A stretch of 64,000 bases of DNA, taken from positions 5,332,001 through 5,396,000 of the forward strand of contig NC_089434.1 of NCBI RefSeq assembly GCF_026210795.1, written 5' to 3'. Shown here piece by piece: positions 2,441 to 55,068 of the stretch; the stretch's first letter is position 1; every line of letters starts with the position of its first letter. Below the pieces are notes generated by a model, which had not been told where the DNA came from, did not search any database, and saw only the letters and a program-made list of their open reading frames with translations. This DNA is from Rhizophagus irregularis (Eukaryota > Glomeromycota > Glomeromycetes > Glomerales > Glomeraceae). The translations under genes and the position numbers were made by a program.

Positions 2441-2571
2441 TTTAAGTCAATAAATCCTATTAATTATTGAAAGAAAAAAAGCGATATTAAAAATGATCCA
2501 ATTTGATAAAAACACAAGAATCAGTATAGTATCAGTATCCAAGAAAATGACATAATAAAAATGATTTATAT

Positions 2572-7172: not shown

Positions 7173-7206
7173 ATTATGGCAAGCCGCCTCGGCGGCTTGC
7201 CATAAT
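7173..7206. repeat. Perfect 16-bp palindromic hairpin
   Basis: The arm ATTATGGCAAGCCGCC (7173-7188), a 2-base TC spacer and the exact reverse complement (7191-7206) form a very GC-rich stem inside AT-rich DNA. It lies in the copy A-specific part (about 6890-7930). There is no T-run next to it. Confidence 0.9.
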
Positions 7207-13629: not shown

Positions 13630-16434
13630 AGGATTGTCCAATTCCTTGGATTCAACTTCAAAGAAAATCCGGATCAGGGGCTCTAAGAGGATTCCCGCAT
13701 ATAATGAGTTGCAGAGTTTTGCCAAAGGAAGCCTTGCCCATAACGATCTTTGAATAAAATATTACAATGGGCGAGTACGTGAATGGGGAGAAGACGAAGA
13801 GAGCAAAGGCTGCAAATGCTTTTATAATATTTTCTTCTAGATATGTGAAAACAATCCAGAATACGTGAAATTAACAATAATAAAAATTGAGATTTTTTGC
13901 GCCTTTTTTTGTGGTGTTTTTTTTTAAAAAAAATGAAATGTTATGAATTAATTAAGTGTAAATGGTATACCTCATTTTTTTCTTAATAAAAAAAATATGT
14001 TTTTTGTATCTTCGAATCTAATGCATTATTTGTCATATTCCGACTATTCCATTATAATTAATTCATTTGAACCTACCACGGACTTTCGCATTCATTGGTG
14101 GCGTGAGTTGTTTTAAGTCAATAAAGCCTATCAATTATTGGAGGAAAAAAAGCGATACTAAAGATGATCCAATTTGATAAATACAAGAATCAGTATCCAT
14201 AATGACAAAAAAAATTATTTATATTTTTATATATTTTGATAGTAATTAACGCAAAAAATCTTTACAGAATTTTATTCAAAGAATAAACTGAAATTTGTTA
14301 TTTATTTAACAACAATTAGGATCTTATATGTAATTATTCAATTCTCAGCCCTGAAAGGACAACACACACTACACTAGTGCAGTTAGTCATTAGTCGACAA
14401 TTATAATTAATTCACGGATAAGACAAATAAAAATATTGGATTATGATCCGTTAAGATCCAATTTTGGGGTTATTGCATGAAATTCATTTATGTAACTTAT
14501 GTAATCACTCTAAAAAACAATAAAACGCCTAAATGTTTAATGCAAATTGTAAATAAATAAAAATTGGGTTTATAATAATGCAATATTGGCTGGCAGCCTT
14601 TCCGTATTTTTTTCTTTTTTACGTTCATTCGCACCCATAACACCACCATTGCGAAATAATTTGTGTAGTATGTATAATGAAATCGATCTTTGTACAGTAC
14701 TTTGGAAATGAATCACTATAATGATGACGCGATCCTCCAAAAAAAGGGAAATTGATTTTGAGAACAAGGAAAAATTTTATGATGAATATTATAATGAATA
14801 TTATCTTGTTTAAAGAATTTATTGGATTATTTTCACCAATTCTGCTGAAAACTTGACATATCTTAACGAATATAAAGGCCACTTTATTATGATTAAAAGA
14901 TGATATCATTAGATAGACAATCATGTTAGGTTAATGAGCCACATTCTTTTTTTTCAGGCATAGATACAATAGCCTAAGTCATGGAATCTACTATTTAATT
15001 AAAATTGTAATCATTAATTAATTGCGTATAAAGAAAGAATCGGGCATATTTTCTCTTTTTTCTGAAACTAACCATCTTTGTAACAAAAACTTCGATCGTG
15101 ATCGCTATAATATCATTATCATCAAAGATTTTGAGAAAACATTAGATTGAAATAAGTATTAAAAAATACTATTTGCTTAACTGTTAAAGATTCTCTTTTT
15201 TTTAACACGAAATCCTTTTAAAATAAATGTTATAATCCTTTTCAGTAACGTTCAACATAATTCTACGTAATATTTGAATCGTATACATAGTTAAACATAA
15301 ATATTATATAATATTAAATAAATAAACTTATTATTGAACATTCTAAACTAATATCATAGAGACATATCTTTGTTTTATTTCTAATATTTTTAAAAATTTT
15401 GATTATTTTAGTATAAAGAAAAAATTCTATATAATAAAAAATTTTTATACATTATACTACCTTAAAATTTCATTTCATCGTCTCTTAATAGGTTTAAGAA
15501 ACACATTTTATTAGTATTCACGGCGTTCATTTCTAGAAAATTGTGTGATCTGTATTCTAAAATCTAGAGCGCAATGTCTAAGTTAAACAATAAATTTATT
15601 GCAATAAAAGTCTTTGTGCTAATATACTGTATATTGCATAAAGAATTAATGAAATAAACTAAATAATATCCATCATGTTTTTTACAATGTTCGATAAAAT
15701 ATTTAATCTTAGAATCTGTCATCCACGATGGAAAAGCTTTTTATATGATTTACTAACCACAGTGTTGTTTCACGTGATCATATATTGAGATGTGAAATCT
15801 ATTTTTAGAAGCTAATAAATATTGAAGTATTATCTCCTAAATTAACATATCATATCATAAGTCTAGAGCGATAGTAATAGTGTCAAAAGATTTCCCTCCG
15901 CAATCTTGTTGGCCAAAAATTCACACATTATATTTAAAGATTATATTGTGCTACATTATGCAACATTTTGATATAATCCATCGATTCTCTACCAATGATG
16001 ATACCGACTTTGATCCAAAAGCAAGGTGAGTAATTTGATTAGATTTTTTTTAACTTCTATTGGTACTTAGTCCAAAAAAACTACAATCGAGAAGAAAGCT
16101 TGATTGCAGAAAGGAACGTATTGAACAAAGAATTTCTGCATTAGGAATTTGAATTATAATCGGCAGCTCTATTAGAAGATACACTAGAGATAGCAATGTG
16201 GTAGGAAGGTTTTCTTTTCAGTTTGATAAAAATATATCGACATAGATGGAATTAATGTAATTAATGTAATTAATGTGATAAATTATTTTAGAGAATTTTC
16301 ACATTAATAATAACATACTGTATATACTATATTCTTATTAAAACAGGAGATTCATTTTGGTCTGGCATAATCAGTTTGCGGATCTGTTTTGGCTCTGGTT
16401 CGGGTCCTCGATTCTTAAAACTCGATTTAAAAAA

Positions 16435-17010
16435 CTCGTGATATCAAATTATATTTCTTTCCTGGTTAATATTAGCAAGAACACGAAATTCTGAAGGTGA
16501 ACGCTGTTCAACCGTTGTCAAATCCATCAAACGTGTAATGATTTTGCGGTAAATGTAAGCAGCTTCGTCTACAGGATTAACGATTGTCGATTGTCATCTC
16601 AGAACCAGATATTTGTCATCATCGAGGCGAGGCCTGCCTAAGTCACCCTTTCTGGAATTTTGGAAATTAAGGATATGCTTATAGTAAAACATTTCTTCTT
16701 TACTGCAAACGGATTTGATTTACAGATCCAGACTGTAAGGCAAATTGCGTGAAATTGGTGTGATTTAATCCTTGTTAAGATTTCTTTTAGCAATTCTTCT
16801 CCATTAGGAAATATAGGATCCCAAATCCTGTTGTAAATATATTGAGTTGCGTCTTTAATTATTAAATCAAAGATCCAAAGAAGGAGTGTTTTTAAATTCG
16901 ACTCCAGGTGATTTTGCCAAGCTCCTTTATGAAATTTCAGGCAATATAAGTCTTTTAGGATCCAAAGATGAATATCAAATGGGATCTATTGTTCAACAAA
17001 CTATTTTATA
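16435..17010 (-). pseudogene. Decayed, unidentified ORF within copy B
   Basis: Minus-strand frames look coding: DATQYIYNRIWDPIFPNGEE with LLKEILTRI near 16800-16860, and NPVDEAAYIYRKIITRLMDL with TTVEQRSPSEFRVLANINQE at 16435-16573. The second stretch is a copy B-specific insertion bounded by sequence shared with copy A. Stops and frame changes separate the pieces. No family was recognised. Confidence 0.35.
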
Positions 17011-17520
17011 AAATCAATAAAAATTGAATTGAAAAAGTGACCGGTAGTTATAATGCGTACCAGTAGAACGGTAAAACTGTAAATCAAATAGTTGTCATTT
17101 CCATGATCACCAATATTAATCTTTGAACAAAGTGAATTCGTTCAACTGAGCAAGAACATATCAAAAAAACGACTTTTTGGTTACAACATATCGTCATTCT
17201 AGATTTGCATAGATACCAGTTTCGATACTGCATGTGATCATAATAATCACCAAACAATGTGTGATGAGTTGATGATCTTATTTTTATTTAATCTTAACAC
17301 TTTTAGTTATATGTATTCAAAGTTAATTTTTTTTCGTACTTGATTAGTGCTTGATTGAAATGCCGTTAATGCCGTTGCACATTCAGCTGTAACTTCTAAG
17401 CAGAAAATTGGACTAATGGTTATTAGTTGATATCAGGATGGGTTACGAATTTTTCCTTGACGTCTTATTCTCCGATGAATGTAAGAGTTCATTCTTCTTA
17501 ATTACAAATTCTCTGCACTC

Positions 17521-17858
17521 ACCTGCTACCCTGGAAGAGCCCGTTCTATTTCTGGAGGAGCTGAAGTATGGCAAGAGTATTATCAATCTGCCATCTCATT
17601 AGGGACAAAATAATGATAAACATTGACTTAAGTGCAACTGCTTTATATAAAGGTGGTCGTTCACTTGTCCAAATTGTTGAAAAATAATTGGAATTTAGAT
17701 TTCCTGATGATCTACGTGAGGGTCTTTCTGAAAGGGAACATCAAATAGTTAAGAGAATAATAAGAAACCTCAAAATAAGAGTTAACCATAGAGCCGAAGC
17801 TCGAACCAGTTCCAAGATTGAAAGATTAACACAAACTCCCGCATCTTCAAAAAGTTGA
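17521..17858 (+). pseudogene. Argonaute linker-1 (DUF1785-type) fragment
   Basis: The first frame reads ISGGAEVWQEYYQSAISLG to a stop at 17611-17613. A +1 shift then gives MINIDLSATALYKGGRSLVQ, an in-frame TAA at 17685-17687, DDLREGLSEREHQIVKRIIR, NLKIRVNHRAEA, and KIERLTQTPASS before TGA at 17856-17858. This order (GG-x-E-VW-x-G-YYQSVRP, then I-N-I-D-x-S-x-x-x-x-Y, a charged helix, L-K-x-x-V-x-H, and L-T-x-x-P) is that of the region between the N and PAZ domains of eukaryotic Argonautes. The segment is absent from the matching site in copy A (about 6525), so it arrived after the duplication or was lost from A. No introns are visible in it. Confidence 0.75.
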
Positions 17859-18664
17859 TATTATTGTAGAGTTGTTATTTCCATAATTTGGAAAGATCCT
17901 TTGCATCAAATAATTTGATATAAATAAATATTGTATAGTGTTACGATATCAAAAAGGTAGAATATATTTCTACTAATATTACCTACTGAATGTTTCAGGT
18001 ACAAAAGTTGACGATTTGCAAAAATCGTATTTGTTATAATGAGGTTTGCCAAAAGCAATAGAGTAAAAAAGCCCTAAGCCAACGTTGACAAAATGCGTGG
18101 ATCATAGTTTAGATATAAGAGAAATTTGTAGGTTTACATATTAATATTTTTGCAGAGTAACAAAAAAATTATTGGAAGCTTGGATGAGAAAGACGTTTGA
18201 ACATGAAGTGGGATTAGTAATGCATGCTTACGATTCAAGATCTAATGTGTGCATTTTAATCTAAAGGATGGAACGAATGCGATTTATTCGCTGTGACCCT
18301 AATCATGAAACGGAACAGAAGCAGCAACCGAATTGCTACGCTAGATAGAATCGGATGTCTGAAAATGAAAAAAACAAAACATTATATTGTTAATATTTCT
18401 AAAGGGAGGAGTAAGGGAAGGAGATAGGTAAGCATCAAAAATTATTGATATTATTTTATGTGTACAATTGCACTTAGTAAAACTATTGTTAATGAACCTG
18501 ATATAATGACAAATATATCTTATACGAATAGGTCAAGTATTAATTAGAATGAATCAAGCGGTCGAATCAATTTGGAACCTATACTGGCAACAACCATCCC
18601 GAATCTTATACCCATAAATCATGATACTCTTAACAGTTTGATCACTATCAAACTAATAACCTGT

Positions 18665-20589: not shown

Positions 20590-21115
20590 AAAAAGTAGAC
20601 AAAATTTAAATTTAAATCAAATTTGAATCAAATCCAAATTAAAACTGAATCAAATTTAAATCAAATCACTAAATCAAATCAAATTCAAATTTAATTAAAT
20701 CAAATAAAATTATGAATTAAATCAAATTAATTCAAATTATTCAAATTAAATTTGAATTAGATCAAATAAAATTACTGAATTAAATCAGATTTTAATTATT
20801 CAAATTAGATTTAAATCAAATTTGAATCAAATTGAATCAAATCAAATTAAATTATAAATCAGATTTGATCAAGTTTAAATTCAATTTAATTCAAATTTGA
20901 TTTAAATCAAATCAAATTTAAATCTAACTAAATTAATTTAATTCGATCTGTACAGAATATTATATATATTTATGAATTTTGCAGATTATTTGCAGATTTG
21001 TGAATTATTTGTAAATTTGCAGATTATTTGTAATTGCAAATTTGCGAATAATTATTTTTTAAAATCTGCAATATTTCAGTTTGCAATATTGCAAATTGCA
21101 AATAATCCACAATTA
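20590..21115. repeat. Low-complexity AATCAAAT and GCAAATTT repeats
   Basis: From 20590 to 20950 the sequence is built from AAATCAAATTTGAATC-like units. From 20975 to 21110 it is built from TTGCAGATTATTTGTAAA-like units, which produces the spurious frame at 20972-21277. Confidence 0.75.
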
Positions 21116-21520
21116 AAGTATTGTGAATATATTTTTAACTATAGATGTTTTATAATATTTTTAATTTTTTTAACTTTCAGAAATTTTATAAAATACAATA
21201 TTTTTTTAAAGTTATATAATATTCAAGAAATCAATCACCTCTATATAATGATTAAGAAACTAATAGATATACTTTAAGATATTTTTACTAAGAACTTTTT
21301 ATATAAGAAGCAATCAATAATATGATATCCTTTTAATTATACAAGTATCCTAAAACATTTAATAACTATAGAAAATTCAATCAGTTATTTGATACCTTTA
21401 GAAAGTGAAAGAATCTCTAATACTCCTAAAAGGACTTTTTTTAAAGTCATAAAGGTTAATAGATATCTATAAAGGGTGGGTAGGTAAGGTAGCATCTCAA
21501 ATCCCCCTAGTTTAACCCTA
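21116..21520. other. AT-rich spacer, nothing recognised
   Basis: No gene, RNA or clear element was found. The only mildly GC-rich part is GGGTGGGTAGGTAAGG at about 21474-21490. Confidence 0.4.
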
Positions 21521-21529
21521 TTATTTTTA

Positions 21530-21965
21530 TTTTAATAATATAAATATTTTTATTTACTAATATATAAACATTTAAATATTTTTATTTAAAATAATAATAT
21601 AGATAATTTTATTTAATAATAATATAACCATTTTATTTAATAATAGATATTTTTTATTTGATAATATAAATATTTAAATATTTTTAATAATATAAACATT
21701 TTTATTTAATAATATAAACATTTTTATTTAATAATATAAATATTTTTATTTGATAATATAAATATCTACTTATCAATGTTTACATTCTTCATTCTGCTCT
21801 TAATCTATGAAGATAATTTTTTAGTAATATTTATTAAATATTTTTTTTTTAATAATTTATATATATATGCTTTATTGATATTATATAAATATTTTTTATT
21901 TGATAATATAAATATTTTTATTTTATTTAATAATATAAATATTTTTATTTTTGAAATTTTATAAA
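21530..21965. repeat. AT-only tandem repeat (TATTTAATAATATAAA units)
   Basis: At least eight degenerate copies of ATTTTTATTTAATAATATAA make up the stretch. The frame at 21776-21964 is an artefact of this composition. Confidence 0.75.
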
Positions 21966-24900
21966 TAAATAAAAAATATAAATTTAATTAATTAATGCAA
22001 ATTTAACTATTAATTTTATTAATATTAAAACTTAAATTCATTATACTTTTCTCATTTTTATTGTTACTTTTATTATTATTCTTATTATTTAATAAATTTG
22101 AAAATAAATTAATAAAATTTAACTTTTAATTTATAATTATTTTAGTATTTACTTTCTTTAAATTTTCTGGTTTTTTTTTAATATTTTTAAAATATTATAT
22201 AATACTATATATAGTATTTTTCTTTAAATGTATTTCATTTTATAAGATCTACAATTAAATATAAAAATTTTTACTTTTGTTTAATACCTTTTCTTAATTC
22301 TGGTAACTTAAGCTTTAATGTTAATTCTAATAAAATATTTGATATTATATAAGGGATGTAAAATAAAATACCCTGTGTATTATTTTGTATAAAGTTCAGG
22401 ATATTATATGCAGAAGTGTTAAAAAGTAAAGTTAATTTCAAGATTATTATTATTATCAAATAAATCAATTCAGAAGTTTTAGAATTTAAATTGGTAAAAT
22501 AAAAGTAGTATATTACAATTAAAAAAAATTTATTAATAATCTTTTTATTCTCTAAATCTTTATAATAAACTATTTTGTTGTAAGTGTTTATAAATAATAA
22601 GAGACATTGAAATAATTGATCTAAATTTTAAAATTGCAATCATTCATAATGCAATGCAAAAGGAAATAATTAGAAATCATGATCTGAACTTTACATATCC
22701 TTATAGTAATTACAAATTTGAAGTGAAATTGGAGTTCAATGCTTAATAAACTCATAAATCATAATGTAATTGTTAGCTAACAGTCAAAATCTCGGAATAA
22801 TTCAAGGCAAGAAAATTTATAGTTTTTATTATTTTTGTAACACAATATGTTATTCCGCTTTGCATTATTTGCATTACACAATATACTATATAATTTAACA
22901 ATAAAAATAAAATTCGTAATAAAGTAAACGATTAATGAATCAATCGTACTAAAATTTTATTATTATATATTTTATAAATATTTACAGATCTCCTACTTAG
23001 TTAGAACGAAAGGTCTATTTTTCTTTATTAAAGAACTTTGTTTAAAGGATTAAAAGAAACTAAATTTAGAAATGATAAGGAAAGATAAAAATTTAATATT
23101 CAGACTGAAATGAAAAGAAATTCTTAAATTATCCGAGTTGACCCTGAGTCACCAATATATTCGGTACTTAAAATTACAATTGGGACAATGGACATTTTTT
23201 TGAAAGAAAATACTTAATTATTAGAACTAATTGAAGTAATACTTCGAAACAGAACAGAAAAAAATATTTACTAAATAAATACCTGATTATGTACAAGATT
23301 TTATACTTTTATAAATTAAATATAAATAATGAAAGTAAAAATTTCAATGTTTTATATAATTAAAGAAAATGAGATTTTGAACAAACGAGATTTAGCTTCG
23401 AAAGAAAGACCTTATCGTACAAATCAACAATTATTTACTAATTTAAGGGATTAATTAATTTCCTTATATTTTTTGCTCATTGTTTTCTGAATAATACAAA
23501 TGATGTTTCAATGATATTCTATAATAAGGATGGGTAAACAAATTCCCGAAACATATTATGTCGCACAAAGATCGATTAATTATCATTCCTGAACGAGAGG
23601 AACTCAAATTGAAAAAAGTATTAACTGTTAAAAATTAGTAATATTAATTATTATTTTATTTACAAGTTAAATAATATGATAAATAATGTCCGTCCGTGTG
23701 AATTTATAATCCACACCTTCAGCACAAATAAAATTTCATTTACGACTCCAGCACCAATTGAAATAGTGATACTATCAAATTTAATTTCGTGTATCAAATA
23801 ACTAACTGATTTATGGTGACAAATTTTTTTTGAAGATGAAAACAATATAATTTAGTAGAATATAATTTAATAGAACAATATTAGATGAAAACAATATAAT
23901 TTAATACAACAATATTAAATTGAAAGAAATCGGAATTATTATTATTAATTCTATTTTTATTTATCCTTTTTTATACAAAGAAATATCAATCGATTTATTA
24001 AATTTATTAGTGATCGTGCGTGTAACTGTATTTGTTTTGATAAAGAATTCAAATTTAGGAATGATTTATTGGCATACTCGGGAGATAAATTCGTATATTA
24101 AGGAGTATAATAGAGAATTTTTTAAATTTTGTGGTAGTTACAGGAACATCTTGTTATGTATATTCGGATTATTGTTTTTAATCTCAAGTTTATTCCTTAA
24201 ATTCGAAACGAAATATAGCATACAAATAAGAACAATCTGATCCGACTCATTTCCTAATAAATTTAAATATATTATTGTTGATCGCCATCGTGAACTTCGC
24301 TCCATAAGTTAAACAAATATTGACAAATATTGACAATAATTGTTCCTCAGATTTTTTAATTCATCAAATTGTGTAACAAATTGCCGTACTTTTTTTGATT
24401 CAGAATAGTAATCACGAGATAAAATAGATGCTAGCAATCAGCATATCGGAATATCAAGTCGAATGTTTGCGTTACGTTACTTGTATAATACGTACGTCAC
24501 TAAAATAATATGACTAATCTTAATTATAATAATTCTTTACGCATAATAAATACCTTTTTCTTCTTGATTATACCAATAGGTTACGATTATACCAATAAGT
24601 TACAAAATCGATAGAGATATATTTGTAGATCATTTTTCATGTATAAAAATATTTTTCAGCAGAAAAATTGATGTCGTACAACAAGGTTACATACAAGTCA
24701 TACAAGTTCAAATGTGAAAATGTGAACGAATTTGTTGATCTACGAGATATTGCTCTTGAACATTCAGTTAATTTGTGGCGTTATTTCTTGTTATATGTGG
24801 CAAAATTCCCGGTATCGGAACGATTATAAAAAACAATTACCGCATCTTTTATAGAAAATTCATAACGCAAAAATTTGTAAAATTATACGATACATTTTTT

Positions 24901-30555: not shown

Positions 30556-31566
30556 CAGATGGCTTGCTAACAAACCATTTTAATACAAAATTAAATACCT
30601 TCACAAAATACATGAGTACAGGTTGGGTAATAATAAATGATAAAAATAAGGTAATACTGAAATGTAGTAACTTAATTACAGAATGGCCATCATCTATATG
30701 TGCAAAATTGAGAGCTATTCTATCAGCTATACTGGGTCAGAAAGCAAATATCTTTACAGTTTCTTAAGCCACGATAGATAGCATCAATTACATAAGAATA
30801 AATTTAATGAATAGAAAAAATAAAATATGAATATGGTATAAAAACAACAATTACAGCATAATTAGTACAGTTTACCCTTCCTATAGCGAATTTTGATATA
30901 ACAAATCATGTGACGCTTAGCCAATAAAATATCCCTCACTATAATGAAGTAACCAATCAAATTCTTCAAATTTTTCGTTAACTTGCTATAACAAATTTGA
31001 GGTGCAGAATGGCTTCTTCGCTATATCAAGGGTAGATTAGTATAATTAATCTTATTGATAGCAAACATTTAGAAGTGAAACTAATAAAGGTCAAAAACCA
31101 CTCAGAAGTTAAAGGTAATAAAAAAGCAGATAGAGTAGCAAAAATGATACAGGAAAATTAATCTGCATCATAATTAATGATTTATAACAAAAGGACTTAA
31201 AATATAATTTATATTGGGATGATAAAAAGGTAAACAGATATATCAGAAAATTTATAGATAATTTATATACTGTAAGTTTGTAGAAGCATCATGGTCTTTC
31301 AACAGAAGAATTTTCCAAGATATGATATACATGATATAAAAAAAAGTTACTTGGGCATTATTTAAAAAGAATATAAAATTTAACTGCACAACAACATCAG
31401 TAAATAACAATTTCATTAAACACTTAAAACTTATAAACAATTTATTACCAACTCTGAAAATTATGAAAGAAAGGAGATATGATTTATATGGAGATGTAAA
31501 GTGCAGGCTATGTCTTGTAGAAAATGAAGATGACGATCACATAATTTACAATCATATAATAGGTAA
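30556..31566 (+). pseudogene. LINE ORF2 C-terminal relic (RNase H plus zinc finger)
   Basis: The first frame starts TDGLLTNH, contains GWVIINDKNKVIL and EWPSSICAKLRAIL, and stops at about 30767. In a LINE RNase H these positions would be TDGS, GxGW and WPSSTRAEL. The catalytic glutamate of the last motif is replaced by lysine. After a MITE insertion (30868-31040) the domain resumes with KVKNHSEVKGNKKADRVAK (catalytic Asp kept). A later frame reads WALFKKNIKFNC, NNLLPTLKIMKERRYDLYGD, and a CRLC...H...H finger (31500-31560). The reverse transcriptase part is missing, so the copy is 5'-truncated and dead. It lies next to the truncated end of the XPF pseudogene. Confidence 0.8.
30868..31040. mobile_element. 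Tc1/mariner-like MITE, 173 bp, nested in the LINE
   Basis: It is flanked by TA (30866-30867 and 31041-31042). The ends are CAGTTTACCCTTCCTATAGC (left) and CTAATCTACCCTTGATATAG (right, reverse strand), both followed by CGAA. The LINE RNase H homology stops before it and resumes after it. The same CAGTYTACCCTTCC end occurs at about 42048. Confidence 0.75.
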
Positions 31567-31769
31567 AAATTACAGCTAATAAGTTTTTTTAGGAAGTTTG
31601 TATATTTAAAAACAAAAAATATTTTGATTATGATTATCAAATAGGCAAAAATTTTTTTTAAAAAATTTGTGCTATATGTAAGAATAAGAACTTTTTTTTT
31701 TAAAAAAAAATAATAATGTAATTTAATAATCACAAATTCGCTATTCTTGAGCTTTTCTTAAAGGAATTT

Positions 31770-33870
31770 AATTAAATTTAAACTATTTACTTCCTTACAT
31801 CTTTCTTTACCATTTTCATTAAACAAATTTTTACTCACTTTACTCATTCCACTTTTCCATTTAAATAATTTTTTAGTAATCTTTCCAACATAATACTACT
31901 TTTATCCAATCCTTGTCTTTCAGCAATATGCATAGTTGATAAATACTCCCTTAGTTGTGAATATTCCCTTTCATTTTCCATCATTATCAATATAGTATTG
32001 TTTAAATGATCTAAATCTTCTTCGGAAGAATTTCTTGAAGTTTCAGTAGCGTGACTTGTTATATCTTATTCAATCTCTTGTAATATTTCTGCCAATAAAT
32101 TCCATTTTGGAACTTCTTCTAATACAGGCTGTATATCCGGAGGTAATTTTGATGTCGGATATGTTTGAATAAGAATTTTTTTGAGTATTATCTGTAGGAT
32201 TTGTAGTTGATGTACGAACGAATACACATCTTTTCGCCACCTAAATAAAGTAAACCCCGATAAATTTGTATAACCAGTCAAACGTAAACTTTGTAAAAAT
32301 ATATCTATGAATATAATTACACTAAAAATCGTACAGCATCCAAAGATAACCAAGGAGATTCTTGTTGTTGTGATAAAGCAGAAGTGGGAGTTTGACTTGT
32401 AATAATGGTTTCTAAAAAACTATTAAATGATACGCAACCATAACTAACCAAGTAACAATAATATTAAAAGTTGATTCAGTTAAATTCAAAAAAGAACCCA
32501 AAAAGAAATTAACGAAAAAACTTAATCAAATACATACCCAAGTAACTTTCTTAGAGTAGTTAAATCATTAACTATCAACTTAGTTTTTGATCTGACACGA
32601 TGCCAGACAGGTTCCAAATTGTCGTTTTATTATTACATCGAAATGAATTTTCTACTGATAAATCATCAACGTTGAATTAATCACAAACTTTCGGTTAAAA
32701 TAAAAATACTGGAAATTTTATAACTTACCCAATTTCCATCCCCCTTTTTTGTTCACTTAAACAAGCTTCAATACATTTGGTAATAGCCTGTTGAATTTCG
32801 TTCATTGATGGGTTTAAAGGTTGATACAATCCTGCTACATCCGCTTTACGCTGTTCTAAGCAATCCCTTATCACATCACATGAAATCTGGTGAACATAAA
32901 TACAAGACAAACCTCGGATATAAAAAAACTTTACGTAATTGAAGTTTGTAAAGGTGATAATCCTGATGAAATAAATGACTTTATAAATCCCTCCTACAAT
33001 AAATACAGGGAGCATAACGATATTAAAAAAACAAATTATATATTAGAGTAATAAGAAAAGCATGAAGGTATGTACCTTATTCTCTTCTTTTAAATATTCT
33101 CAAGATGAATACTTCTGTTGAAGTTTCATTCACCCTAAAGCAAAAGAAGTACATATGTTAATCAATTCGATGTTAAATTTATACATAAACAAAAAACTTG
33201 TCCAACAAAGATATAACCAAAAAAGGTATCACCCATTTGTAAAAGAAAAAAATATGCAATACCTTTCAGCGTGCATAACTAAAATTCTAGTAATCAGATA
33301 AGTTTTTGTAAAAGATCAATTATAAGTATTCTTGAAGTTATAGACCAGAAACGTATAATTCTGATCTATAAATAAATTAAATAAATACTTTTAAATTATG
33401 ATTCTTTATTCATTGATCATTTTTATTTTCTCTCTTTTTTTTTTCCTTGATACAATAATATCAGATATATTTAAATTTGCGTTCCATTAAATCCATCCTT
33501 ATTTCCGATTTTCTTTTCTTCATAGCTTTTACTTATTAAAAATTTTAATTTTACTAATCTTTCATTTCTAATCTTTATTAATCTTTATAAATTTACTCCT
33601 TCTCAATTCTCTTATCGTGAATTAACCTTTCTCTAGAATTAGTTTCATTATTAACAACGCGAAGTCCAGGATTCTTGACAACCACATTCAGCAAGTTCTT
33701 CTTTAATAAAGTTTAACTCGTGTCCATTAGCATTCAGTAATATTACTAAAGATTCTTTATCAGAATAAATTTTTAGTAGTGCACTACGTAAGCCAAACCA
33801 CGGCTTAACATAAGTAAACCATCTTCAGATAACAATTTTTCGATAAGGTGACGATAGATTTCTAGTGGGA
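31770..33870 (-). pseudogene. XPF/ERCC4 (Rad1-type) repair endonuclease pseudogene
   Basis: XPF is the nuclease subunit of the XPF-ERCC1 nucleotide-excision-repair enzyme. Reading on the minus strand, matching segments occur in family order: EKLLSEDGLLMLSRGL (33830-33790), SLVILLNANGHELNFIKEEL, NPGLRVVNNETNSRER (about 33650), NETSTEVFILRIF (about 33130), SGLSPLQTSIT (about 32960), DCLEQRKADVAGLYQPLNPS with MNEIQQAITKCIEACL (32870-32740), EPVWHRVRSKTKLIVNDLTT (about 32600), CVSFNSFLETIITSQTPTS with SPWLSLDA (32430-32330), PVLEEVPKWNLLAEILQEIE (32130-32066), REYSQLREYL (about 31960), and SGMSKVSKNLF (about 31840). Introns with GTAAGT and GTATGT donors are still present, so it is a genomic copy and not a processed one. 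Several frameshifts, a stop after the LAEILQEIE segment, and the total absence of the C-terminal ERCC4 nuclease and helix-hairpin-helix domains show that it is broken. Confidence 0.8.
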
Positions 33871-34010
33871 GTGTGCAATAATATGTAAGCTGAGTTGAGG
33901 AAAGCGGAGGTAAGTTTGTATGAGAGCATATTTGAAAACGAGAGGAATAATGAGATTCGGGAGGTGATCTTACTGGAAAAAAGTCGGAATCATTTATGAA
34001 GACATTGTAG

Positions 34011-34191
34011 GTTCAGAAGGTGGTTCTGTTCTTTCTTTCTCTTCCAATCAAGGTGGCAACATCCTGTTTCCGTAAGGTACAGTCGTGTTTTGGTTATCAG
34101 TTTATCGAATTACTTTTAGTCTTAGTATGTAGAACTCGGTAATTTTTACTGTAACTCCGTTCGTTTTGTGAATTAAAAATAAAAATAAAAA
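34011..34191 (+). mobile_element. Short retroelement (SINE or truncated LINE) with 19-bp target duplication
   Basis: Flanks 33992-34010 and 34192-34210 are 18/19 identical (ATTTATGAMGACATTGTAG). The insert ends in an AAAAATAAAAATAAAAAA tail, which indicates target-primed reverse transcription in + orientation. Its 3' part (TACTGTAACYYCGTTC, TTTTGTGAA) matches 37100-37140, so a family exists. It sits between the XPF pseudogene and TPX2. Confidence 0.85.
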
Positions 34192-34320
34192 ATTTATGAC
34201 GACATTGTAGTAACAACTAATTTTTTTGTCGATCATTTTCCGTTAGATTTGAAATTGATTTTTTATTTCAAATGATTAATTTAATTGTATAGTGTTTTTT
34301 TCAAATTTGTCAACCATCTA

Positions 34321-36131
34321 CTAGTTATTATTTTCCTTTCCATTCTTTTTTAGTAGCTTTCTATTATTATTTTTGGATTGGGGAACTATTTTTGCTGTTG
34401 AAACGTTCTCCGACATCGTATTAGGTTCATTTAATGCTTGTAATTTTATACGTCTTTTCTCCCCAATCAGTGGTGAAACGGGTTTGGTTACTTTTCTGTT
34501 AAATTCTATTTTGACGGGCGCATACCTTTTGATTGGCTGAGCACGGTGTACTAATTCGGCTCTCAATTGACGAATTTCTCGAATTTCTCGTTTATTACGT
34601 TCCTGATTATAATTTTTAAATGCATTTCGAATTTATTTATGATCATCGTTTCTCAAATAAAAATGTTTTATATCGTACCTCCTCTTCGTTTTGCTTTCGT
34701 ATCTTTTCTTCTTGCTCACGTAAGTTTCTCTGTTTATCATATACCTTACGTTTTTCAAGACGTTCATCGGAATGAAGTTTGAATTCAACAGTTTTCGTTA
34801 TAGGTTTATCCGATTTTTTCGGACGATAAGGTACCACATTAGGCGCTGGTCTTGCACGAAATGGTAAATCTTCCTTTGTAATTTTTTCACGTAAAGATTG
34901 TTGGTATTTTTCTCCTCTAATGTCAGTCCTTAGTTTAAAAGGCTTAGTCGCAGTAGTAGGTAACGGAGGCAAACCCTATAATAAGAAATAATTAATTAAA
35001 ATACGAACGAAATTTTTTTTTTTTTTACCATAAATATATTTTGTCAAGTAACTTACACCATGTAAACCACTAGGAAGTGGTTGAGCCTTAAATTTGTAAG
35101 GTTCAGTTTTCTTGACGCGCCCAGAATTGTTATCAACCGGTTTTGATTGTATTTTATTATTATTAATTCCATTTTCATTGTTCTTCAATCTATAGAAATT
35201 ATTATAAATATTTAATATATAAAATATAAAATGGAGAAAAACTCTTTATTTAATTAAGTTTACCTGGTTCTTTCAGCCCTTAATTTAGTGCGCAAGAATG
35301 GAGACTTCGTTTTTGTAGGAAGATTAACATAATTCGATGTAGACTATAAAATTTAAATTTTTTAGCTTAGTTAAATTTAGCTTAGTTAAATTTAATTTAA
35401 TTATAACTATCAGAAATGACATGTTCCCTTACTCTCATTGTCACAAGCTTTGGTTTGAGTTTGTCTGGAGTTTTTTCTATAAATTGTTGTATACGCTCTG
35501 CCAATGAAATAATTGGCGATTTACGCGCATCCGAACACTTTCTCGCGTTAAATCTTTTGATAAGTTGTTGTCGTTTCTTAAAATATAAATAACAAAGGTA
35601 TTGACTATTTGAATAAGAATATGATTATATGATTAGGTATTATACGAATATTCATACCCGAATCCCTTGAGATTTACGACCAAGATATTTTTTTATTTGT
35701 TTATCAATATTAGTAGGTTTGATAATAACCTCGTTTACAGGTTTTTCTAAAAAGTTTACAACTGGCAGTTCATTATTTTTATCATCACTGGCTTTTACGT
35801 CGAGATTATCAAGAAATTTTATTCTTTTTGGTTCTCTCAAAGGACTCTTAGTAGTAAGTTTCTCAATTATAAATTTAGCATAATCCCTTGACGGTGTAAG
35901 AAGGGTTAGTCTCCTTGTTGCGGAACTTGTTGAGGAACCTATGGGATTTAGGAAACGTGTAGTTAATAAAATTAATAACAAAACCATATTAAATGCTTCG
36001 AAAAAAAATTCGTTCAATGTACCAAAAAAAGAATCTCCTTGACTAAAAGTTGCACTATTATTCAAGTTTCTGTAACGTGGAGCGAGGAAAGAAAAAGAAT
36101 TCGGTGTTTCAATTTCTAAATTCTTGGACAT
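34321..36131 (-). CDS. TPX2-family spindle assembly protein
   Basis: Exons on the minus strand are 36131-36023, 35938-35658, 35576-35433, 35343-35264, 35189-35057, 34975-34679 and 34602-34321. All phases agree and give 441 residues. The first intron (35939-36022, 84 bp) is open and in frame, so it may be retained (469 residues). Donors include GTATGA, GTAAGG, GTAAAC, GTAAGT and GTACGA; acceptors end AAG, TAG or CAG. The N-terminus (NSFSFLAPRYRNL, GDSFF) resembles the aromatic Aurora-binding start of TPX2. The middle has LAERIQQFIEKTPDKLKPK and SPFLRTKLRAERT. The C-terminus carries VEFKLHSDERLEKRKVYDKQ, a charged coiled coil, LRAELVHRAQPIKRYAPV and KPVSPLIG, the hallmark TPX2 C-terminal segments. 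The family binds microtubules and activates Aurora kinase at the spindle. The start at 36131 gives MSKNLEIE; an ATG at 36149 is also possible. The gene looks intact. Confidence 0.88.
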
Positions 36132-41510: not shown

Positions 41511-42041
41511 TTGGCGGTTAAACTTTTATCCGGTATCACGTGATATATTTTTGGCTGAAATAGCCAAATTATATAAACTTTTATACATATCCACCAATCT
41601 GCAAAATGTAAATAATAATTATAACACAAAAAAAAGGATACAGATATTGTATATCATAATTTGACTTTACTGATAGAAAAGAAGCAAATTTGGCCAAATT
41701 TAAAAATTTAAAAATCAGTTTTTTGTAATTATTTTATTATCCAATGATCCAATTTGGCCAATTTTTCTTTTAAATTGTAGCTAATAGCTATTAATAAAAA
41801 TGAACTATACAAAATAAAAAAAAAGTTTATTCAAAACTGATTACTAGATTTAAAATAATTACAAAAAACTAAAATATCAATTTAATAATTTTAATATATT
41901 AAATATTTAATTAACAGATATAGTACAGAATTTATATACTTAAATTACTTATGTATAATAATAATCAATTGATATAAATTTCTAAAAAAAAAGTTTTTTA
42001 TATTAAAATAAAAAATTTAATCAATAATTTGTTTAGGTATA

Positions 42042-42370
42042 CTACCCAGTCTACCCTTCCAAAAGTATCAGGTTAACCAATAAATATAACTAGTATTTAG
42101 TTAGCCATCATTATTTTTAATGTATGCTTCAATTTGGAATGGTATACTTTTAATTCAATTAATATAAGTTTTGGATGGAAATACTTCCTACTCTTCTTGC
42201 AATACTTTTTTAAGTTTATAAAAATTCTTTGGATGTGCAAATCATTTTCAAATAAAGTCATTGTTCAAGTTTATGTTATAAATATTCAATAGGATTAAAG
42301 TCCAGAGATTGGAAAGACCAATCTGGAAGAACTTTAATTATTTTCTGTACAATTCAATTTTTAACTTCTC
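42042..42370 (-). mobile_element. Tc1/mariner transposase relic and terminal repeat
   Basis: Minus-strand reading near 42330-42280 gives PDWSFQSLDFNPIEYL, corresponding to the W-P-x-x-S-P-D-x-N-P-I-E motif that holds the second catalytic aspartate of Tc1 transposases. The first Asp is kept, while the surrounding residues and frame are degraded. The end at 42048 onward (CCAGTCTACCCTTCC) matches the MITE end at 30868. The N-terminal half and the other terminus were not located. Confidence 0.55.
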
Positions 42371-43289
42371 TAATCAACTAGAAATCAGATATCTGATTTT
42401 AAACTGAAATTAGAGATAAAAATTGCCAATTTATTAATTTAAAGAAAATTCTGATTGGCAAGCCAATTTATGCAATTTCATATGATATAAATCATACTGA
42501 CACATATTTTACAGTGACTTTTTTTAATTTATTATTTAATTTACATTACTTAATAAAAAATTTAAATTTAGAATTAGAATTAAAAACTAGAAAAATGATC
42601 ATTTATTAGATTTTTTTAATAATAAAAAATATTGTAATTATATTTACTTGAATCTAAAAATAAATCAAAATTTAAACTAAAATAGAAAATATTGATGTTT
42701 TGTTATGGGAAATATCAAGTGGAAAACTATAATTCAAATATAATATATAAAATTTCAAAAAGCCAAATTATTTAACTTGTTTTATCTTAAATACTATTTC
42801 TAATACTTATAATAATTATTCTAATCATTTTCTTCAAATTTTACTTTTAAATATTGTCAAAAAGTACTACTGCTAGCTAATAAATAGAAATATAATTTTT
42901 TCATTAACATTAATTTAGACACATTAAAATAAGTAAGAAACAACAGTGATTTTCTAATTCTTGATCTAATATAAATCAAAAATTTGTCAAATGTCAGAAT
43001 TTTTTCCAGTTACTTTCTTTAAATTTTGCTTTTAAATATTGGCGAAAGGTATCATTATTAGCATATTCCATCACTAAATAACAACAATCATTTTCCAATT
43101 CTTGATCTAAATTTATCAAATGTTTGAATAGAAATTGTCATTTCTTTAAATTTTAAAGAATGCTACTATCAGCATATTCTATCATCAAATAACAATGATT
43201 ATTTTTTGATTCTTGAATTTAAAAATGAATCAAATTTTCTATAACAAAAATATCATTATAATATACCTCTTATGAAAACTATTAAAAAT
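42371..43289. other. AT-rich stretch
   Basis: Three diverged copies of a block around CAAATTTTACTTTTAAATAT followed by CTAATAAATAGAAATA-like text (near 42835, 43015, 43130) suggest an old tandem repeat of about 0.15 kb. No gene is recognised. Confidence 0.35.
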
Positions 43290-43665
43290 AGAGGCTAAAT
43301 TCTTGGAATTGGAAATAGAATTTTCAAGAACTCAATAATCAAGAAAGAATTTTTTTTTCATCTTGTTGTTTGACAGGATTTCCCAAGCATTAGATGAGTC
43401 ATTTGATGAACTGACTTTTTCTAACAAGAGTTGTCTAGTCGCAAAGCACCTGAATTTTCTCCTTATAATAATATTAGAAAATCACAAACGATTATATCAG
43501 GAGTCTTGAGTTTGAATATGACTCCTGAATTCTTTTTACGGCATTTAGGCCAATTGAGATTAAAGTTTGTAATGCTCCAATTGGACACATTAAAAGAGAA
43601 ATAGGAAATTAAAGGTAGATTAGATAAGAAGATTAAGAGAATGATTAGATGCATTAGGTGTAATA
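43290..43665 (+). pseudogene. Decayed ORF of the AKFLEL family
   Basis: One frame reads IEAKFLELEIEFSRTQ, then ISQALDESFDELTFSNKS. After a shift the next reads SRRKAPEFSPYNNIRKSQTI, PEFFLRHLGQLRLKFVMLQL, DTLKEK, a stop, then KGRLDKKIKRMIRCIRCN. The shared AKFLEL block ties it to 9587-9770. The function is unknown; it is probably part of a repetitive or lineage-specific gene family. Confidence 0.4.
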
Positions 43666-45365
43666 GTGTGAAGAAATTATAGATGACTATTTTCTTGCAA
43701 TAAATAATTATTAATATATTTTAAATTTAATAACAAAATTTTGAATTATTGAAAGTGATGGATTTATTTAAATGTTTACTATGTTTAATATAATTAAAAA
43801 TGGTTGAAGGTGAGAAGGCATCTCTTTTATAAGTAATCCAACAATCAAAAAAATGTGATTTATAAAATATATTATTTGTAAAAGGTTTTGATTATGTTTT
43901 ATTGAGGCCAATAAAATTTAATTACAAGAAAAATAGAAAAACTAAAAGAATTTCTTTTTATTCATTGTTTCAAATTTGTTATGAAACAAAGTAAAAGCCA
44001 AACTTTCCTTTCAATTTTGTACCTTTTTTAGATCTTTTGAAATCATGGTTATTTTTTTCTAATTTATGTGGGTCGTACAATTAAACTGTTTAAATACAAA
44101 TAAAGTTTTAAAATTAGTAAAAATAATACCAAATATTTGATCTCTAATATTCTTTAAATAATTTAATTTCTTCAGGTAATTACAACATAATTCCGTCTAA
44201 CTTTAAATATCCGCTTCATAATCCCTTAAATTTGTGTTAATAAAAAATATATTATTCATTTACAGTATGAAACAAACAATTTTCATACTGAAAGTCAACC
44301 GATTCTCGTACTTCATGTACGTAATTTTTAATCAATAATTTAAATATAGTAATATTTATACCAATGTCGCGATTATAAAAAAATATGCAGGTTATCAAAT
44401 GATGCATCACGGTATTCCCACCAACTTACAAACTTGGAACTTTGATCATCCAAAACTCCATTTAACAAGTCAACGCTCATGATAGTGTTACACCGATTTG
44501 ATGTAAGACGTCAGGTAGTAGCAGAAAATAAATAAGGATCGGACGATAGACAAATAACGTTAAAAGCGGTAGGTAAATTAAGGTCAATAGGGAACAATCG
44601 ATAAATGATCAAGGATGTAATTAAAATGTATATATAAAAGATAATAAACAAATAATAATAAAATAAACAAGTGATATATATGAGAAAATTAGTAAGCAAT
44701 GATAAAAACGATATGTGGTTTTATAAATTGATAACAATCGCAATATGACTTTTACACGATAACAAAGTTTATTAAGAAATCGAAAATGATCAGCGGGTGT
44801 CTTTATTAACAAATAAAAGAAATACAATATCACTGCCTCCTTCGGCGCCTATCTCTATGTTAATACCAAAATCACACACATTCATCGCGTTCTAAATCTT
44901 ATAACATCTCAAAACCTGGGACAATTATGTTCAAAGAACAATTTTGTCCTCGGACAATGTTGCCCTCCGGCCAATTTTGTCGATCAGCCAATTTTGGCCT
45001 AATAAGCCTCAACCGGAACTTTCCCAGCCACTCATTAACTAATCATCCGATTCCCGTCATTAGACAAATAACCCAAAATAAATTATATATAAAAATAAAC
45101 TATACTATATTATAAAATAACCTAAATTAAACCTAAAAAAAAAACTAAACTAAAAATTTCGTAACAAATGCATACAAAAAACTTTGATTATAAAAAAAAA
45201 GGTTTTTTATGTCCTTTTATTGCGTTTCAAAACTTAGTTAATTTAGGGCTCAATAGACAACAATCGATATGAAAAATATGACATACTTGGCATACTAAAA
45301 ATCTTGCCTTTACTAATAATAAAAAGTACTAATCTTGAATGATACTTTTTACGGAAACAACGTGA
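43666..45365. other. AT-rich spacer with GGCC-type motifs
   Basis: No gene is recognised. Bases 44925-45010 repeat motifs such as GGACAATT, TTTTGTCC and CAGCCAATTTTGGCC, resembling the GGCC/AATT motif family at 29765-29915. Frames at 44511-44833 are noise. Confidence 0.35.
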
Positions 45366-49600: not shown

Positions 49601-49945
49601 ATCTAAATTAATGATTTAATCTGAATGAAAGAAAATTATAAGAAAATCACCAATCAATATTGTTGTTATTAAATTCTTTTTTAACTCCAAGATAACTCAA
49701 CTCCAGCAATTGTTAAATCAACACTAATTAAACTAAAAAGGCTGTAAAGAAAATGAAAGCAGAGATCTTGAAAAAAAAAAATATATATATATATTTTTGT
49801 ATATACACAGTAAAAACTTTTAATTGATTTTACTTTAATATAAGGTAAATTTAAACTTTTTTTTGAGTTAAGAAGAGTATTTATCTTAGAATGTTAATAT
49901 ATTTTTTTTTTTAATCCAGGGATTTAATTAGTAAATTTCTTAATA

Positions 49946-50140
49946 GTGTTAAATGGTTTTTTATGTTCTCAATGGTTGGATACTTCTGCATTGAATACTA
50001 AAAGAATTTTAGCAATTGAGGGAATCGTCGGTTTAATTGAGATATCAACAATTGTTAAATTCGTAAATGCAAACTACCACAAACATATGAATATTACCAA
50101 CTACAACTATCCTCACCCCTATATTCAAAAGAAAGAATAA
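49946..50140 (+). CDS. Possible terminal exon or ORF fragment
   Basis: A TTTCTTAATAG acceptor-like sequence precedes an open stretch encoding LNGFLCSQWLDTSALNTKRI, LAIEGIVGLIEISTIVKFVN and a Tyr/His/Pro-rich end before TAA. The middle is hydrophobic. There is no ATG and no recognised family. Confidence 0.3.
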   Translation: MLNGFLCSQWLDTSALNTKRILAIEGIVGLIEISTIVKFVNANYHKHMNITNYNYPHPYIQKKE

Positions 50141-53289: not shown

Positions 53290-55068
53290 ATTCGCAGCCC
53301 TTCAGGAGTTGACTTCTTATATTACTTAATGCGTGGTTTAGTGCCGTCATCTTGGAAGACGTCCTTAATTTTACCGATATCAAACCACAAAACTTTAATT
53401 ATAATATTAATAATACACGCCCTATTACGCTTCTTTGATTGTATCAGAAAAGCGATCGCCAACTTGGTTACGAATAGGCTTAGCAGATAACAATGCCCTA
53501 AAAGGACTTAATTTCTGTGGATTAAAGTTGAAAGTACTATCAATTCTTACCAGTATCAAAAGACTCCAGAGAAATAAAAAGAATTATGGATAGCGGCGCG
53601 AGATAAAAAAAAGTAATAAGGTCCCGACAAGGTTTAGTGTTCAACAGGCTGGACATCATGGGGTCACTCAGAGTCGTAGACGATTATTTCTACTTGTTTT
53701 TCGAAACAAGGTTCAATTAATGTTTTACTACCAGATGGCACATCATTCACATATAACCATTGAAGAAAGCTTATGATTCTATAGGATAGAAGGATTGTCC
53801 TTAGCACTTCGATAGAATTGACGTTCCTCCGCGATGTCCGAACTTGCTTTTATCAAACACTCTTCCAAAGAGTGGAAGAAGACACAAAATTTGAAACTCG
53901 AATTCGAGAAGCTATCCAAGATGTCTTCTATTGAATTATTCATCTTTTTATGTATAGAAAAATGAGTGTCCTTACTTATATGGAACAAGTCCACAGTTTG
54001 TAGTCAACGATGAAATAGATCAGGGCGACGCACTCGATTACATGCCTACTCATCAAGAGTTAAAGTCATGTGGCAACTGACACTTGTATTTGGATAGAGA
54101 GGTAGATAGATAGATAGACAATCCTCAACCTAAACAGGAGCTATTAACAGTACGAAACAAGTTAGACATAGATTTTCAATTAATTTTAATTTTAATTAAT
54201 TGGCGTATAAAGAAATAGCATCACAAATGGGCGACATAGATTTAGAAACATAAATATCAATGGGCGCGGCTTTCATTGTTCAAGAAACTAATCAATCAGT
54301 TAACGCACGGACTTCCAAACACGAAATGCAGCAGAACACTCATCGTTAAAAGTTAACGAGTGTACACATGAACTAACTGGAAACGATCTCGAATGATCTC
54401 GAATGGGATATAACTTGGAGCATCTTCGAACAAATCAAAAGCTTCAAATGTGATTCGATGACTAAACACAAAATTTTCATATTTGTTACTAAACTATTTT
54501 ACAACCTTCTTCCTACTGCATATATGTTAAAAAGAAGGAAAGACGCGCTTTACGAAGATCTAACGTGTCCATCATGCAATTCAGCCACAGTTGAAACGAC
54601 AGCAATTGCCTGATTTATAGTAATCAAAATCATGAAATACACCGCTGCACTTATGAATTGCGGTTAATGCTGCGATTATTGCTCCGGAGTCAGCCAAATA
54701 AGTCCAAATAATTTCTCGGAAAAATTCGAACCTTTTTTCAAACAAGACATCAAAACGAGACTTCCGCGTCATATCAAAGCTGACGATGAGTAAACTCAGG
54801 ATATCAAGATCTAAGGCGCTAGCGTATTTGACGCACTTCTAGTCACACTTATTGAATTATTTAAAGAACTCGTATGGATTCTGAGATGCAAAAATATGAT
54901 CAATGGGGAGAAAGGACACAACATCGTGGTGCACGACAAAAGGGCCTCCTCATCACAATTTCCGAATATACATACGAACGAATCGAGCATACTTGACGTG
55001 CATATAATATATTATATAGAGATGAGAATTATATTGCTCAATCAAGTTTATAATAGTATATAAAAAGA
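53290..55068 (+). pseudogene. LINE ORF2 relic (reverse transcriptase, RNase H, C-terminus)
   Basis: Segments follow the order of a non-LTR retrotransposon polyprotein. PSSWKTSLILPI (about 53345) and CIRKAIANLVTNRLS (about 53445) correspond to early reverse transcriptase motifs. ELWIAARDKKK (about 53582) matches the region with the first catalytic Asp. VNDEIDQGDALDY (about 54003) matches the D-G-x-x-Q-G block. MGAAFIVQETNQS (about 54255) begins RNase H; KLFYNLLPTAYMLKRRKDAL and CPSC (54495-54580) form the zinc-binding end; LIELFKELVWILRCKNM (about 54850) is the C-terminal helix. Stops and frameshifts are frequent, and no YADD motif was found. It is a second, longer copy of the family at 30556-31566. 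Confidence 0.75.

What the first reader, a model, noticed from the sequence alone, without database searches (positions are those of the whole stretch)
31770..33870. Broken XPF/ERCC4 gene with introns kept and the nuclease half missing
About ten segments match XPF in the right order on the minus strand, with retained splice sites, several frameshifts and at least one in-frame stop. Homology ends at 31770, just before a LINE relic, so the ERCC4 nuclease and HhH domains are gone. XPF is normally a conserved single-copy repair gene, so a genomic (not processed) partial duplicate is unusual. The segment identities come from known XPF sequences; the duplication and truncation history is inference.
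Basis: partly seen in the sequence, partly recalled or inferred. Interest (0 to 1): 0.75.

Follow-up and report, generated by a model that had tools for sequence, protein, structure and literature searches.

The report
Dead duplicate of XPF repair gene
In a root-symbiotic fungus, a copied two-gene block left a dead copy of the DNA-repair gene XPF beside a living spindle-protein gene, while at the source the repair gene lives and its neighbour is broken; a sister scrap of the dead copy bears heavy C-to-T damage.

Summary
On the minus strand, window 34005-31734 matches XPF exons 1-8 and the last 21 nt of exon 9; homology runs through intron 9 to 31680. The copy is dead: 16 frame-breaking exon indels, two in-frame stops, lost or shrunken introns. 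The genome (very probably Rhizophagus irregularis) keeps an intact 17-exon XPF on contig C27, so XPF is not lost. The copied block also held the neighbouring TPX2-like gene, which is intact here (36131-34321) but rearranged and frame-broken beside the living C27 XPF. Locus tags suggest the two genes are neighbours in R. clarus, so each R. irregularis locus probably kept a different one: reciprocal loss after block duplication. Two further XPF pieces lie on C6. One, at 5.02 Mb, shares a 29-nt deletion with the window. The other, at 5.30 Mb, has 31 of 32 private substitutions C>T/G>A, on both strands: a RIP-like signature, the strongest among 97 repeat pairs tested. The pseudogene is an ordinary kind of thing. 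The hypermutated sibling is the surprise, since RIP signatures are cited as not detected in the AM fungus Gigaspora margarita.

The parts
33627..34005 (-). XPF exon 1 remnant (start codon at 34005-34003, TAA as codon 4; 10-nt, 9-nt and 1-nt deletions, 1-nt insertion)
33263..33365 (-). XPF exon 2 remnant (two 10-nt deletions)
33076..33134 (-). XPF exon 3 remnant (1-nt insertion)
32913..32993 (-). XPF exon 4 remnant (21-nt and 14-nt deletions)
32729..32886 (-). XPF exon 5 remnant (2-nt insertion, 1-nt deletion); intron 4 before it shrunk to 26 nt
32538..32673 (-). XPF exon 6 remnant (splice acceptor removed by a 29-nt deletion shared with the copy at C6:5022039-5022842; 11-nt deletion, 1-nt insertion)
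32321..32455 (-). XPF exon 7 remnant (acceptor AG>TG; 4-nt deletion)
31783..32240 (-). XPF exon 8 remnant (10-nt insertion, stop at codon 435, 3-nt, 1-nt and 20-nt deletions; donor site lost)
31680..31754 (-). Last 21 nt of XPF exon 9 plus intron 9; homology to XPF ends here, exons 10-17 absent
34011..34191 (.). Dispersed SINE-like repeat (39 further full or partial matches listed in the genome) inserted at the XPF start codon
33992..34010 (.). 19-nt target-site duplication, copy 1 (copy 2 at 34192-34210, 95% identical)
34192..34210 (.). 19-nt target-site duplication, copy 2
34321..36131 (-). Intact TPX2-like gene, 7 exons (36131-36023, 35938-35658, 35576-35433, 35343-35264, 35189-35057, 34975-34679, 34602-34321), 441 aa, all introns GT-AG; PF06886 58 bits
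30497..31548 (.). Dispersed repeat relic downstream of the break, LINE-like by its frames, with a second ~180-bp repeat inside (about 30846-31036)

Best explanation
This is a non-functional, unprocessed (duplicated) pseudogene of XPF/ERCC4. Shown: neighbouring TPX2-like and XPF sequences exist both at C27 and in the window; XPF is intact and TPX2-like broken at C27, the reverse in the window; the dead XPF shares its intron-5 deletion with another dead copy on C6. Inferred: after the split from R. clarus the block was copied from C27 to C6. The C6 XPF then decayed, gaining deletions, a SINE-like insertion at its start codon, and a break in intron 9 near a LINE-like relic, while the TPX2-like gene survived on C6 and its C27 twin was rearranged. 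It makes no XPF protein; the intact C27 gene presumably supplies the repair nuclease. Pieces of the dead copy were duplicated again inside C6.
For: Intact C27 XPF: 17 exons, all introns GT-AG, 996 aa; ERCC4 domain 99.6 bits; 99% identical to an annotated R. irregularis protein of 982 aa, which lacks 14 residues at the end of my exon 8; matches full-length solved XPF over residues 51-990. Window copy: exons and introns equally diverged (1424/1497 and 647/680 identical), 16 frame-breaking indels and 2 stops, Ka/Ks 0.59 over 497 codons. Of 43 codons that differ and have an R. clarus residue (the 2 stops included), R. clarus agrees with C27 at 33, with the window at 7, with neither at 3. Timing: of 454 codons, 10 are shared by C27 and window against R. 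clarus + G. cerebriforme, 0 support the opposite order, 1 conflicts. The 29-nt deletion over the intron-5 acceptor is identical in the copy at C6:5022039-5022842. TPX2-like: intact in the window, matched by annotated proteins of R. irregularis (441 aa, 99%) and R. diaphanus (439 aa, 92%); at C27 in pieces on both strands and in several frames, one exon piece with a stop. R. clarus tags RclHR1_04500012 (XPF) and RclHR1_04500013 (TPX2-like) are consecutive.
Against: The TPX2-like sequences do not single out the C27 relic as closest kin of the window gene: window-C27 719/838 (85.8%), window-C22 751/871 and window-C23 749/869 (86.2%), window-C6:5049 499/565 (88.3%). So one joint block duplication is likely but not proven; intron divergence of the two genes is compatible (18/236 against 33/680 differing, Fisher p = 0.14). 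Ka/Ks of 0.59 lies between constraint and neutrality, as expected when one branch stays constrained, but does not by itself prove death. Transcription was not testable.
Confidence: 0.9

Rival explanations
1. The window copy is a young functional gene making a truncated, nuclease-free XPF (for example a scaffold or decoy that competes with XPF).
For: Exon-intron order is kept and introns 1, 2, 3 and 7 keep both splice sites. Nuclease-dead members of the XPF family exist (recalled).
Against: Stop at codon 4, 16 frame-breaking indels, intron 4 of 26 nt, acceptors of introns 5 and 6 lost, start codon region split by a repeat. Changes fall on the window branch 33 to 7. A protein search with its 73-aa exon-8 frame found only 2 short R. 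irregularis models, whose residues match the other C6 copy by my reading; that search reaches only proteins of about 40-128 aa.
Confidence: 0.02
2. The locus is transcribed as a non-coding or antisense RNA that feeds small-RNA silencing of XPF or of repeats.
For: 95% gap-free identity to XPF over about 2.2 kb. RNAi pathway genes are said to be encoded in AM genomes (passage of PMC8647823).
Against: No expression data could be tested; no Rfam family reaches its gathering score in the 64-kb window. No positive evidence.
Confidence: 0.06
3. Assembly or sequencing artefact: a haplotype or error-laden copy of the C27 gene.
For: Only one assembly was examined.
Against: Different contig and flanks; 106 substitutions and indels up to 177 nt. 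A deletion is shared with a second locus, and that second locus seems to be seen in public R. irregularis protein models P0121 and P0122. The window XPF copy itself was not looked for in other strains' DNA.
Confidence: 0.02
4. On origin only: a mobile element captured and spread the XPF-TPX2 pieces (several copies on C6).
For: Three sets of pieces lie within about 347 kb of C6, and other sequences are duplicated between the same stretches.
Against: Copies differ in extent and order, which looks like local segmental duplication plus breakage. Shared terminal motifs or target duplications around the whole block were not searched for systematically; none was noticed.
Confidence: 0.1

Closest known systems
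Duplicated (unprocessed) pseudogenes from segmental duplication
   Same: Introns and flanking gene copied with the gene; frameshifts and stops; intact parent elsewhere
   Different: The partner gene in the block shows the opposite fate at the two loci; the dead copy was re-copied and one scrap is C>T hypermutated
Reciprocal (differential) gene loss after duplication
   Same: Each of two duplicate loci keeps a different member of a neighbouring pair that is probably ancestral
   Different: Known mostly after whole-genome duplication (recalled); here from a block of about 4 kb, and two more intact TPX2-like paralogues exist on C22 and C23
Repeat-induced point mutation (RIP)
   Same: For the sibling scrap C6:5300690-5300939: almost only C>T/G>A, both strands, in one copy of a duplicated sequence
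   Different: Classic RIP prefers CpA, hits both copies and long duplicates (recalled); here CpG 9/15, CpA 11/28, CpT 7/25, CpC 4/15, and the parent and the two other copies show no such burst

Membership tests
XPF/ERCC4 homologue (window copy, by descent) | Collinear homology to XPF exons | tested here: met
   exons 1-8 and part of 9, 95.1% gap-free identity
XPF/ERCC4 functional endonuclease | ERCC4 nuclease domain and C-terminal HhH present | tested here: not met
   PF02732 search of the whole genome gives 3 places, none on C6; homology to the parent ends at 31680, exons 10-17 absent
XPF/ERCC4 functional endonuclease | Open spliced reading frame | tested here: not met
   16 frame-breaking indels, stops at codons 4 and 435, broken splice sites
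Unprocessed duplicated pseudogene | Introns retained, parent elsewhere, disabling lesions | tested here: met
Unprocessed duplicated pseudogene | Flanking DNA of the parent co-duplicated | tested here: met
   upstream TPX2-like homology at both loci; opposite states. The TPX2 distances do not prove that both genes were copied at once
Unprocessed duplicated pseudogene | Not translated or transcribed into product | not testable with these tools
   no RNA data
Processed (retro) pseudogene | Introns absent, poly-A tail | tested here: not met
   introns aligned at 647/680 identity
RIP (for sibling copy C6:5300690-5300939) | C>T/G>A transitions strongly over-represented in a repeated sequence | tested here: met
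   31 of 32 against 46 of 106 in the window copy, Fisher p = 9e-9; 97-pair control
RIP (for sibling copy C6:5300690-5300939) | CpA context preference | tested here: inconclusive
   CpG 9/15, CpA 11/28, CpT 7/25, CpC 4/15
RIP (for sibling copy C6:5300690-5300939) | Depends on a RID-type methyltransferase and a sexual phase | not tested
   a passage of PMC8298701 says the AMF clade has RID; PF00145 matches 6 places here, not assigned to types

The most novel reading that the evidence does not exclude
R. irregularis has, or recently had, a duplicate-targeted cytosine-deaminating process (RIP or RIP-like). The dead XPF lineage on C6 recorded it: one of its re-copies (C6:5300690-5300939) was hit at 37% of its G:C sites with almost no other change, while the parent and the two other copies escaped.
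Probability: 0.3. Interest if true: 0.72.

Novelty: new member of a known kind. Interest (0 to 1): 0.42.

Why it matters
As a gene it is ordinary: a dead spare copy, and the fungus keeps its XPF. As a record it is useful. It probably shows two neighbouring genes parting ways by block duplication and opposite loss within the genus Rhizophagus. It also supplies a set of copies with a known parent in which one shows a burst of C>T/G>A change. Dallaire et al. 2021 (PMC8647823, passages seen) write that RIP signatures have not been detected in Gigaspora margarita or Mucoromycotina, while Chaturvedi et al. 2021 (PMC8298701, one passage seen) state that the AMF clade has the RID methyltransferase. 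If the burst is RIP-like, a genome-wide scan could test whether these supposedly asexual fungi run a defence that elsewhere is tied to the sexual cycle (that link is recalled).

Tried and rejected
A truncated but working XPF: rejected by the lesions. Processed copy: rejected, introns present. Loss of XPF from the genome: rejected, intact on C27. A second nuclease-half copy: only 3 ERCC4 places, read as MUS81-like, XPF and EME1-like from their ORFs (the MUS81 and EME1 labels are recalled, not searched). A longer collinear C27-C6 block: not seen in the 49.9 kb of C27 compared with the window and the held C6 stretches; five or so other C27-C6 matches there (for example C6:5018098-5018540 and 5302017-5302264) look like dispersed repeats but were not each checked. 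Hypermutation as general decay of repeats: not supported in held DNA, where 2 of 97 tested pairs (at least 120 bp, at most 97% identical, at least 12 differences) had a directional C>T share over 0.8, both involving the same scrap. Against a clean contrast: 8 of 97 pairs had an uncorrected directional p below 0.01; two are the scrap, two the C23 element, four are weaker (shares 0.33-0.68). More hypermutated XPF exons: none clearly above the reversed-sequence control in the held C6 stretches (best extra 125 bits, control up to 117). RIP indices were not distinctive in this AT-rich genome, although the scrap itself has CpG observed/expected 0.0. RNA families in the window: none at gathering score. 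Pfam scan of two frames of the LINE-like relic: nothing. Dating in years: not tried. Papers holding Rhizophagus, pseudogenes and segmental duplication: 5, none on the subject by title. PMC11075540 searched for RIP terms: 0 occurrences.

A first version of the spectrum script failed with an index error and was rerun corrected. The raw three-way count (718 same, 31 copy-2-private, 21 window-private, 13 shared, 1 all different) includes misaligned ends; the trimmed counts are 21 window-private, 15 copy-2-private and 11 where window and copy 2 agree against C27.

Full report
WHAT IS THERE. The window is G000:C6:5332001-5396000 of a 146.7-Mb genome in 32 contigs. It is very probably Rhizophagus irregularis: the XPF model matches an annotated R. 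irregularis protein at 99%, and the C22, C23 and window TPX2-like models match annotated R. irregularis proteins at 569/572, 553/553 and 435/441 residues. A published R. irregularis assembly also has 32 chromosomes (PMC10234402, passages seen). On the minus strand, 34005-31734 matches exons 1-8 and the end of exon 9 of the genome's own XPF, and homology runs through intron 9 to 31680.

THE PARENT. Searching the genome for the ERCC4 nuclease domain gives 3 places, none on C6. The place on C27 belongs to XPF. Its splicing gives 17 exons, all introns GT-AG, and 996 codons ending in a stop; the annotated protein has 982 residues because it lacks 14 at the end of my exon 8. The protein has the ERCC4 domain (99.6 bits) and aligns with solved full-length XPF over residues 51-990. 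So the organism has a working-looking XPF, and the window copy is a spare.

THE LESIONS. Base by base the copy differs from C27 by 106 substitutions and 37 indels; 16 indels break the exon frame, and aligned codons 4 and 435 are stops. Exons and introns are equally diverged (1424/1497 and 647/680 identical). Introns 1, 2, 3 and 7 keep their sites; intron 4 is 26 nt long, introns 5 and 6 lost their acceptors and intron 8 lost both sites. A repeat with 39 further full or partial matches listed sits at 34011-34191 with a 19-nt target duplication over the start codon. Of 43 codons that differ and have an R. clarus residue (2 stops included), R. clarus sides with C27 in 33, with the window in 7 and with neither in 3, so most change is on the window branch. 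Counting shared states on 454 codons, 10 put the duplication after the R. clarus split, 0 before, 1 conflicts.

A TWO-GENE BLOCK WITH OPPOSITE FATES. Upstream of the dead XPF lies an intact TPX2-like gene, 7 exons and 441 aa, with PF06886 at 58 bits. An annotated R. irregularis protein (441 aa, 99%) and an R. diaphanus protein (439 aa, 92%) match it, and window-C22 Ka/Ks is 0.44 with bootstrap range 0.33-0.62. At C27 the TPX2-like sequence beside the living XPF lies in pieces on both strands and in several frames, one exon piece with an in-frame stop. That the two genes are neighbours there is read from tags and contig length, not from the DNA. The simplest history is one ancestral pair, copied as a block, each locus losing the other gene. 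Two caveats: the window TPX2-like gene is not closest to the C27 relic (85.8%, against 86.2% to C22 and C23 and 88.3% to the C6:5049 relic), and intact paralogues on C22 and C23 mean that TPX2-like was copied more than once.

MORE COPIES ON C6. C6:5021307-5022841 carries the end of exon 5, exons 6-7, part of 8, part of 10, exons 11-12 and about 22 nt of exon 13, the first nuclease exon, with the stretch between parts 8 and 10 missing (exon limits against matches). It shares with the window the identical 29-nt deletion that removes the intron-5 acceptor, so both descend from a copy that was already damaged. Two short R. irregularis protein models, P0121 and P0122, match this copy by reading of their residues, so it seems to exist in other R. 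irregularis assemblies. C6:5299909-5300939 holds exon 1 in two parts and shares the 10-nt exon-1 deletion of the window; the 9-nt one probably too, by my reading. It agrees with the window against C27 at 10 sites and with C27 against the window at 5. TPX2-like relics lie at C6:5049285-5050270 and 5149114-5149554. Other sequences are also duplicated between these stretches, so this part of C6 looks like a zone of local copying and breakage.

THE HYPERMUTATED SIBLING. In the exon-1 scrap at C6:5300694-5300939, 225 aligned sites agree between C27 and window; 32 of them changed in the scrap: 31 are C>T or G>A (20 and 11), 1 is C>A/G>T, none T>C. 31 of 83 G:C sites are hit; contexts CpG 9/15, CpA 11/28, CpT 7/25, CpC 4/15. 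The window copy has 46 of 106 (Fisher p = 9e-9). In a purine/pyrimidine alphabet, 105 bp are identical to C27; the other 162-bp piece, which holds gaps, is 92%. Control: 97 repeat pairs in 193.9 kb of held DNA; the two pairs over 0.8 directional share both involve this scrap, and the next (0.79; 19:1:4) marks C23:2168986-2169159, upstream of a TPX2-like gene. Eight of 97 pairs have an uncorrected p below 0.01; four of these are neither the scrap nor the C23 element and have lower shares, 0.33-0.68. Slow decay would also have left other changes, so a burst is the better reading, but 225 sites are few. Literature: RIP signatures not detected in Gigaspora margarita or Mucoromycotina, as cited in PMC8647823 (passages); the AMF clade is said to have RID (PMC8298701, one passage). 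My searches on RIP with R. irregularis or AM fungi listed 20 of 20 papers, 14 of 14 and 12 of 484; none reports RIP in an AM fungus by its title, and of these only PMC8647823 and PMC8298701 were opened, for passages.

HOW IT WORKS. Best reading: it does nothing as a gene. Shown: lesions, intact parent, opposite state of the partner gene, shared deletion, biased spectrum. Inferred: direction C27 to C6, single block event, neutral decay, and the cause of the C>T burst.

Mended against the calls: the extent of the 5.02-Mb copy, the wording on stops in the C27 TPX2-like relic, the weaker asymmetric pairs, the margin, and the scope of the paper searches.

Noticed in passing
G000:C6:5300690-5300939 (L025): Exon-1 scrap of XPF with 31 of 32 private substitutions C>T/G>A on both strands: RIP-like hypermutation in an AM fungus
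   Followed up: partly
G000:C23:2168986-2169159 (L028): A second copy with directional C>T/G>A excess (19:1:4 against its C22 copy, 13:1:4 against its C27 copy), just 5' of a TPX2-like gene
   Followed up: no
window 34321-36131, C22:1898477-1900673, C23:2166473-2168624: TPX2-like paralogues whose introns are more alike than their exons: window-C22 introns 421/452 (93%), exons 1119/1305 (86%); Ks 0.30 is far above intron divergence
   Followed up: partly
window 53321-54620 and C6:5052251-5054499: LINE-like relic carrying a fragment that reads like a C-5 DNA methyltransferase motif (QAGHHGVxQSRRRLF; label recalled); PF00145 scores 29.7 bits on the C6:5052530 copy
   Followed up: no
window 34011-34191: SINE-like 181-bp repeat with 19-nt target duplication, 39 further full or partial genomic matches listed, no Rfam match
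   Followed up: partly
window about 1724-8331 and 13653-18564: Six matches between these two stretches at 68-86% identity, two of them inverted (C6:5333.7-5340.3 kb and 5345.7-5350.6 kb)
   Followed up: no
window 21001-22500, 42001-44000, 51001-53000: AT-rich stretches (GC 8-25%) with almost no CpG (0-3 per 500 bp)
   Followed up: no
C6:5381712-5382233 (window about 49712-50233): Weak match to the TPX2-like gene in a purine/pyrimidine alphabet (144 bits, reversed control up to 119), perhaps another decayed relic
   Followed up: no
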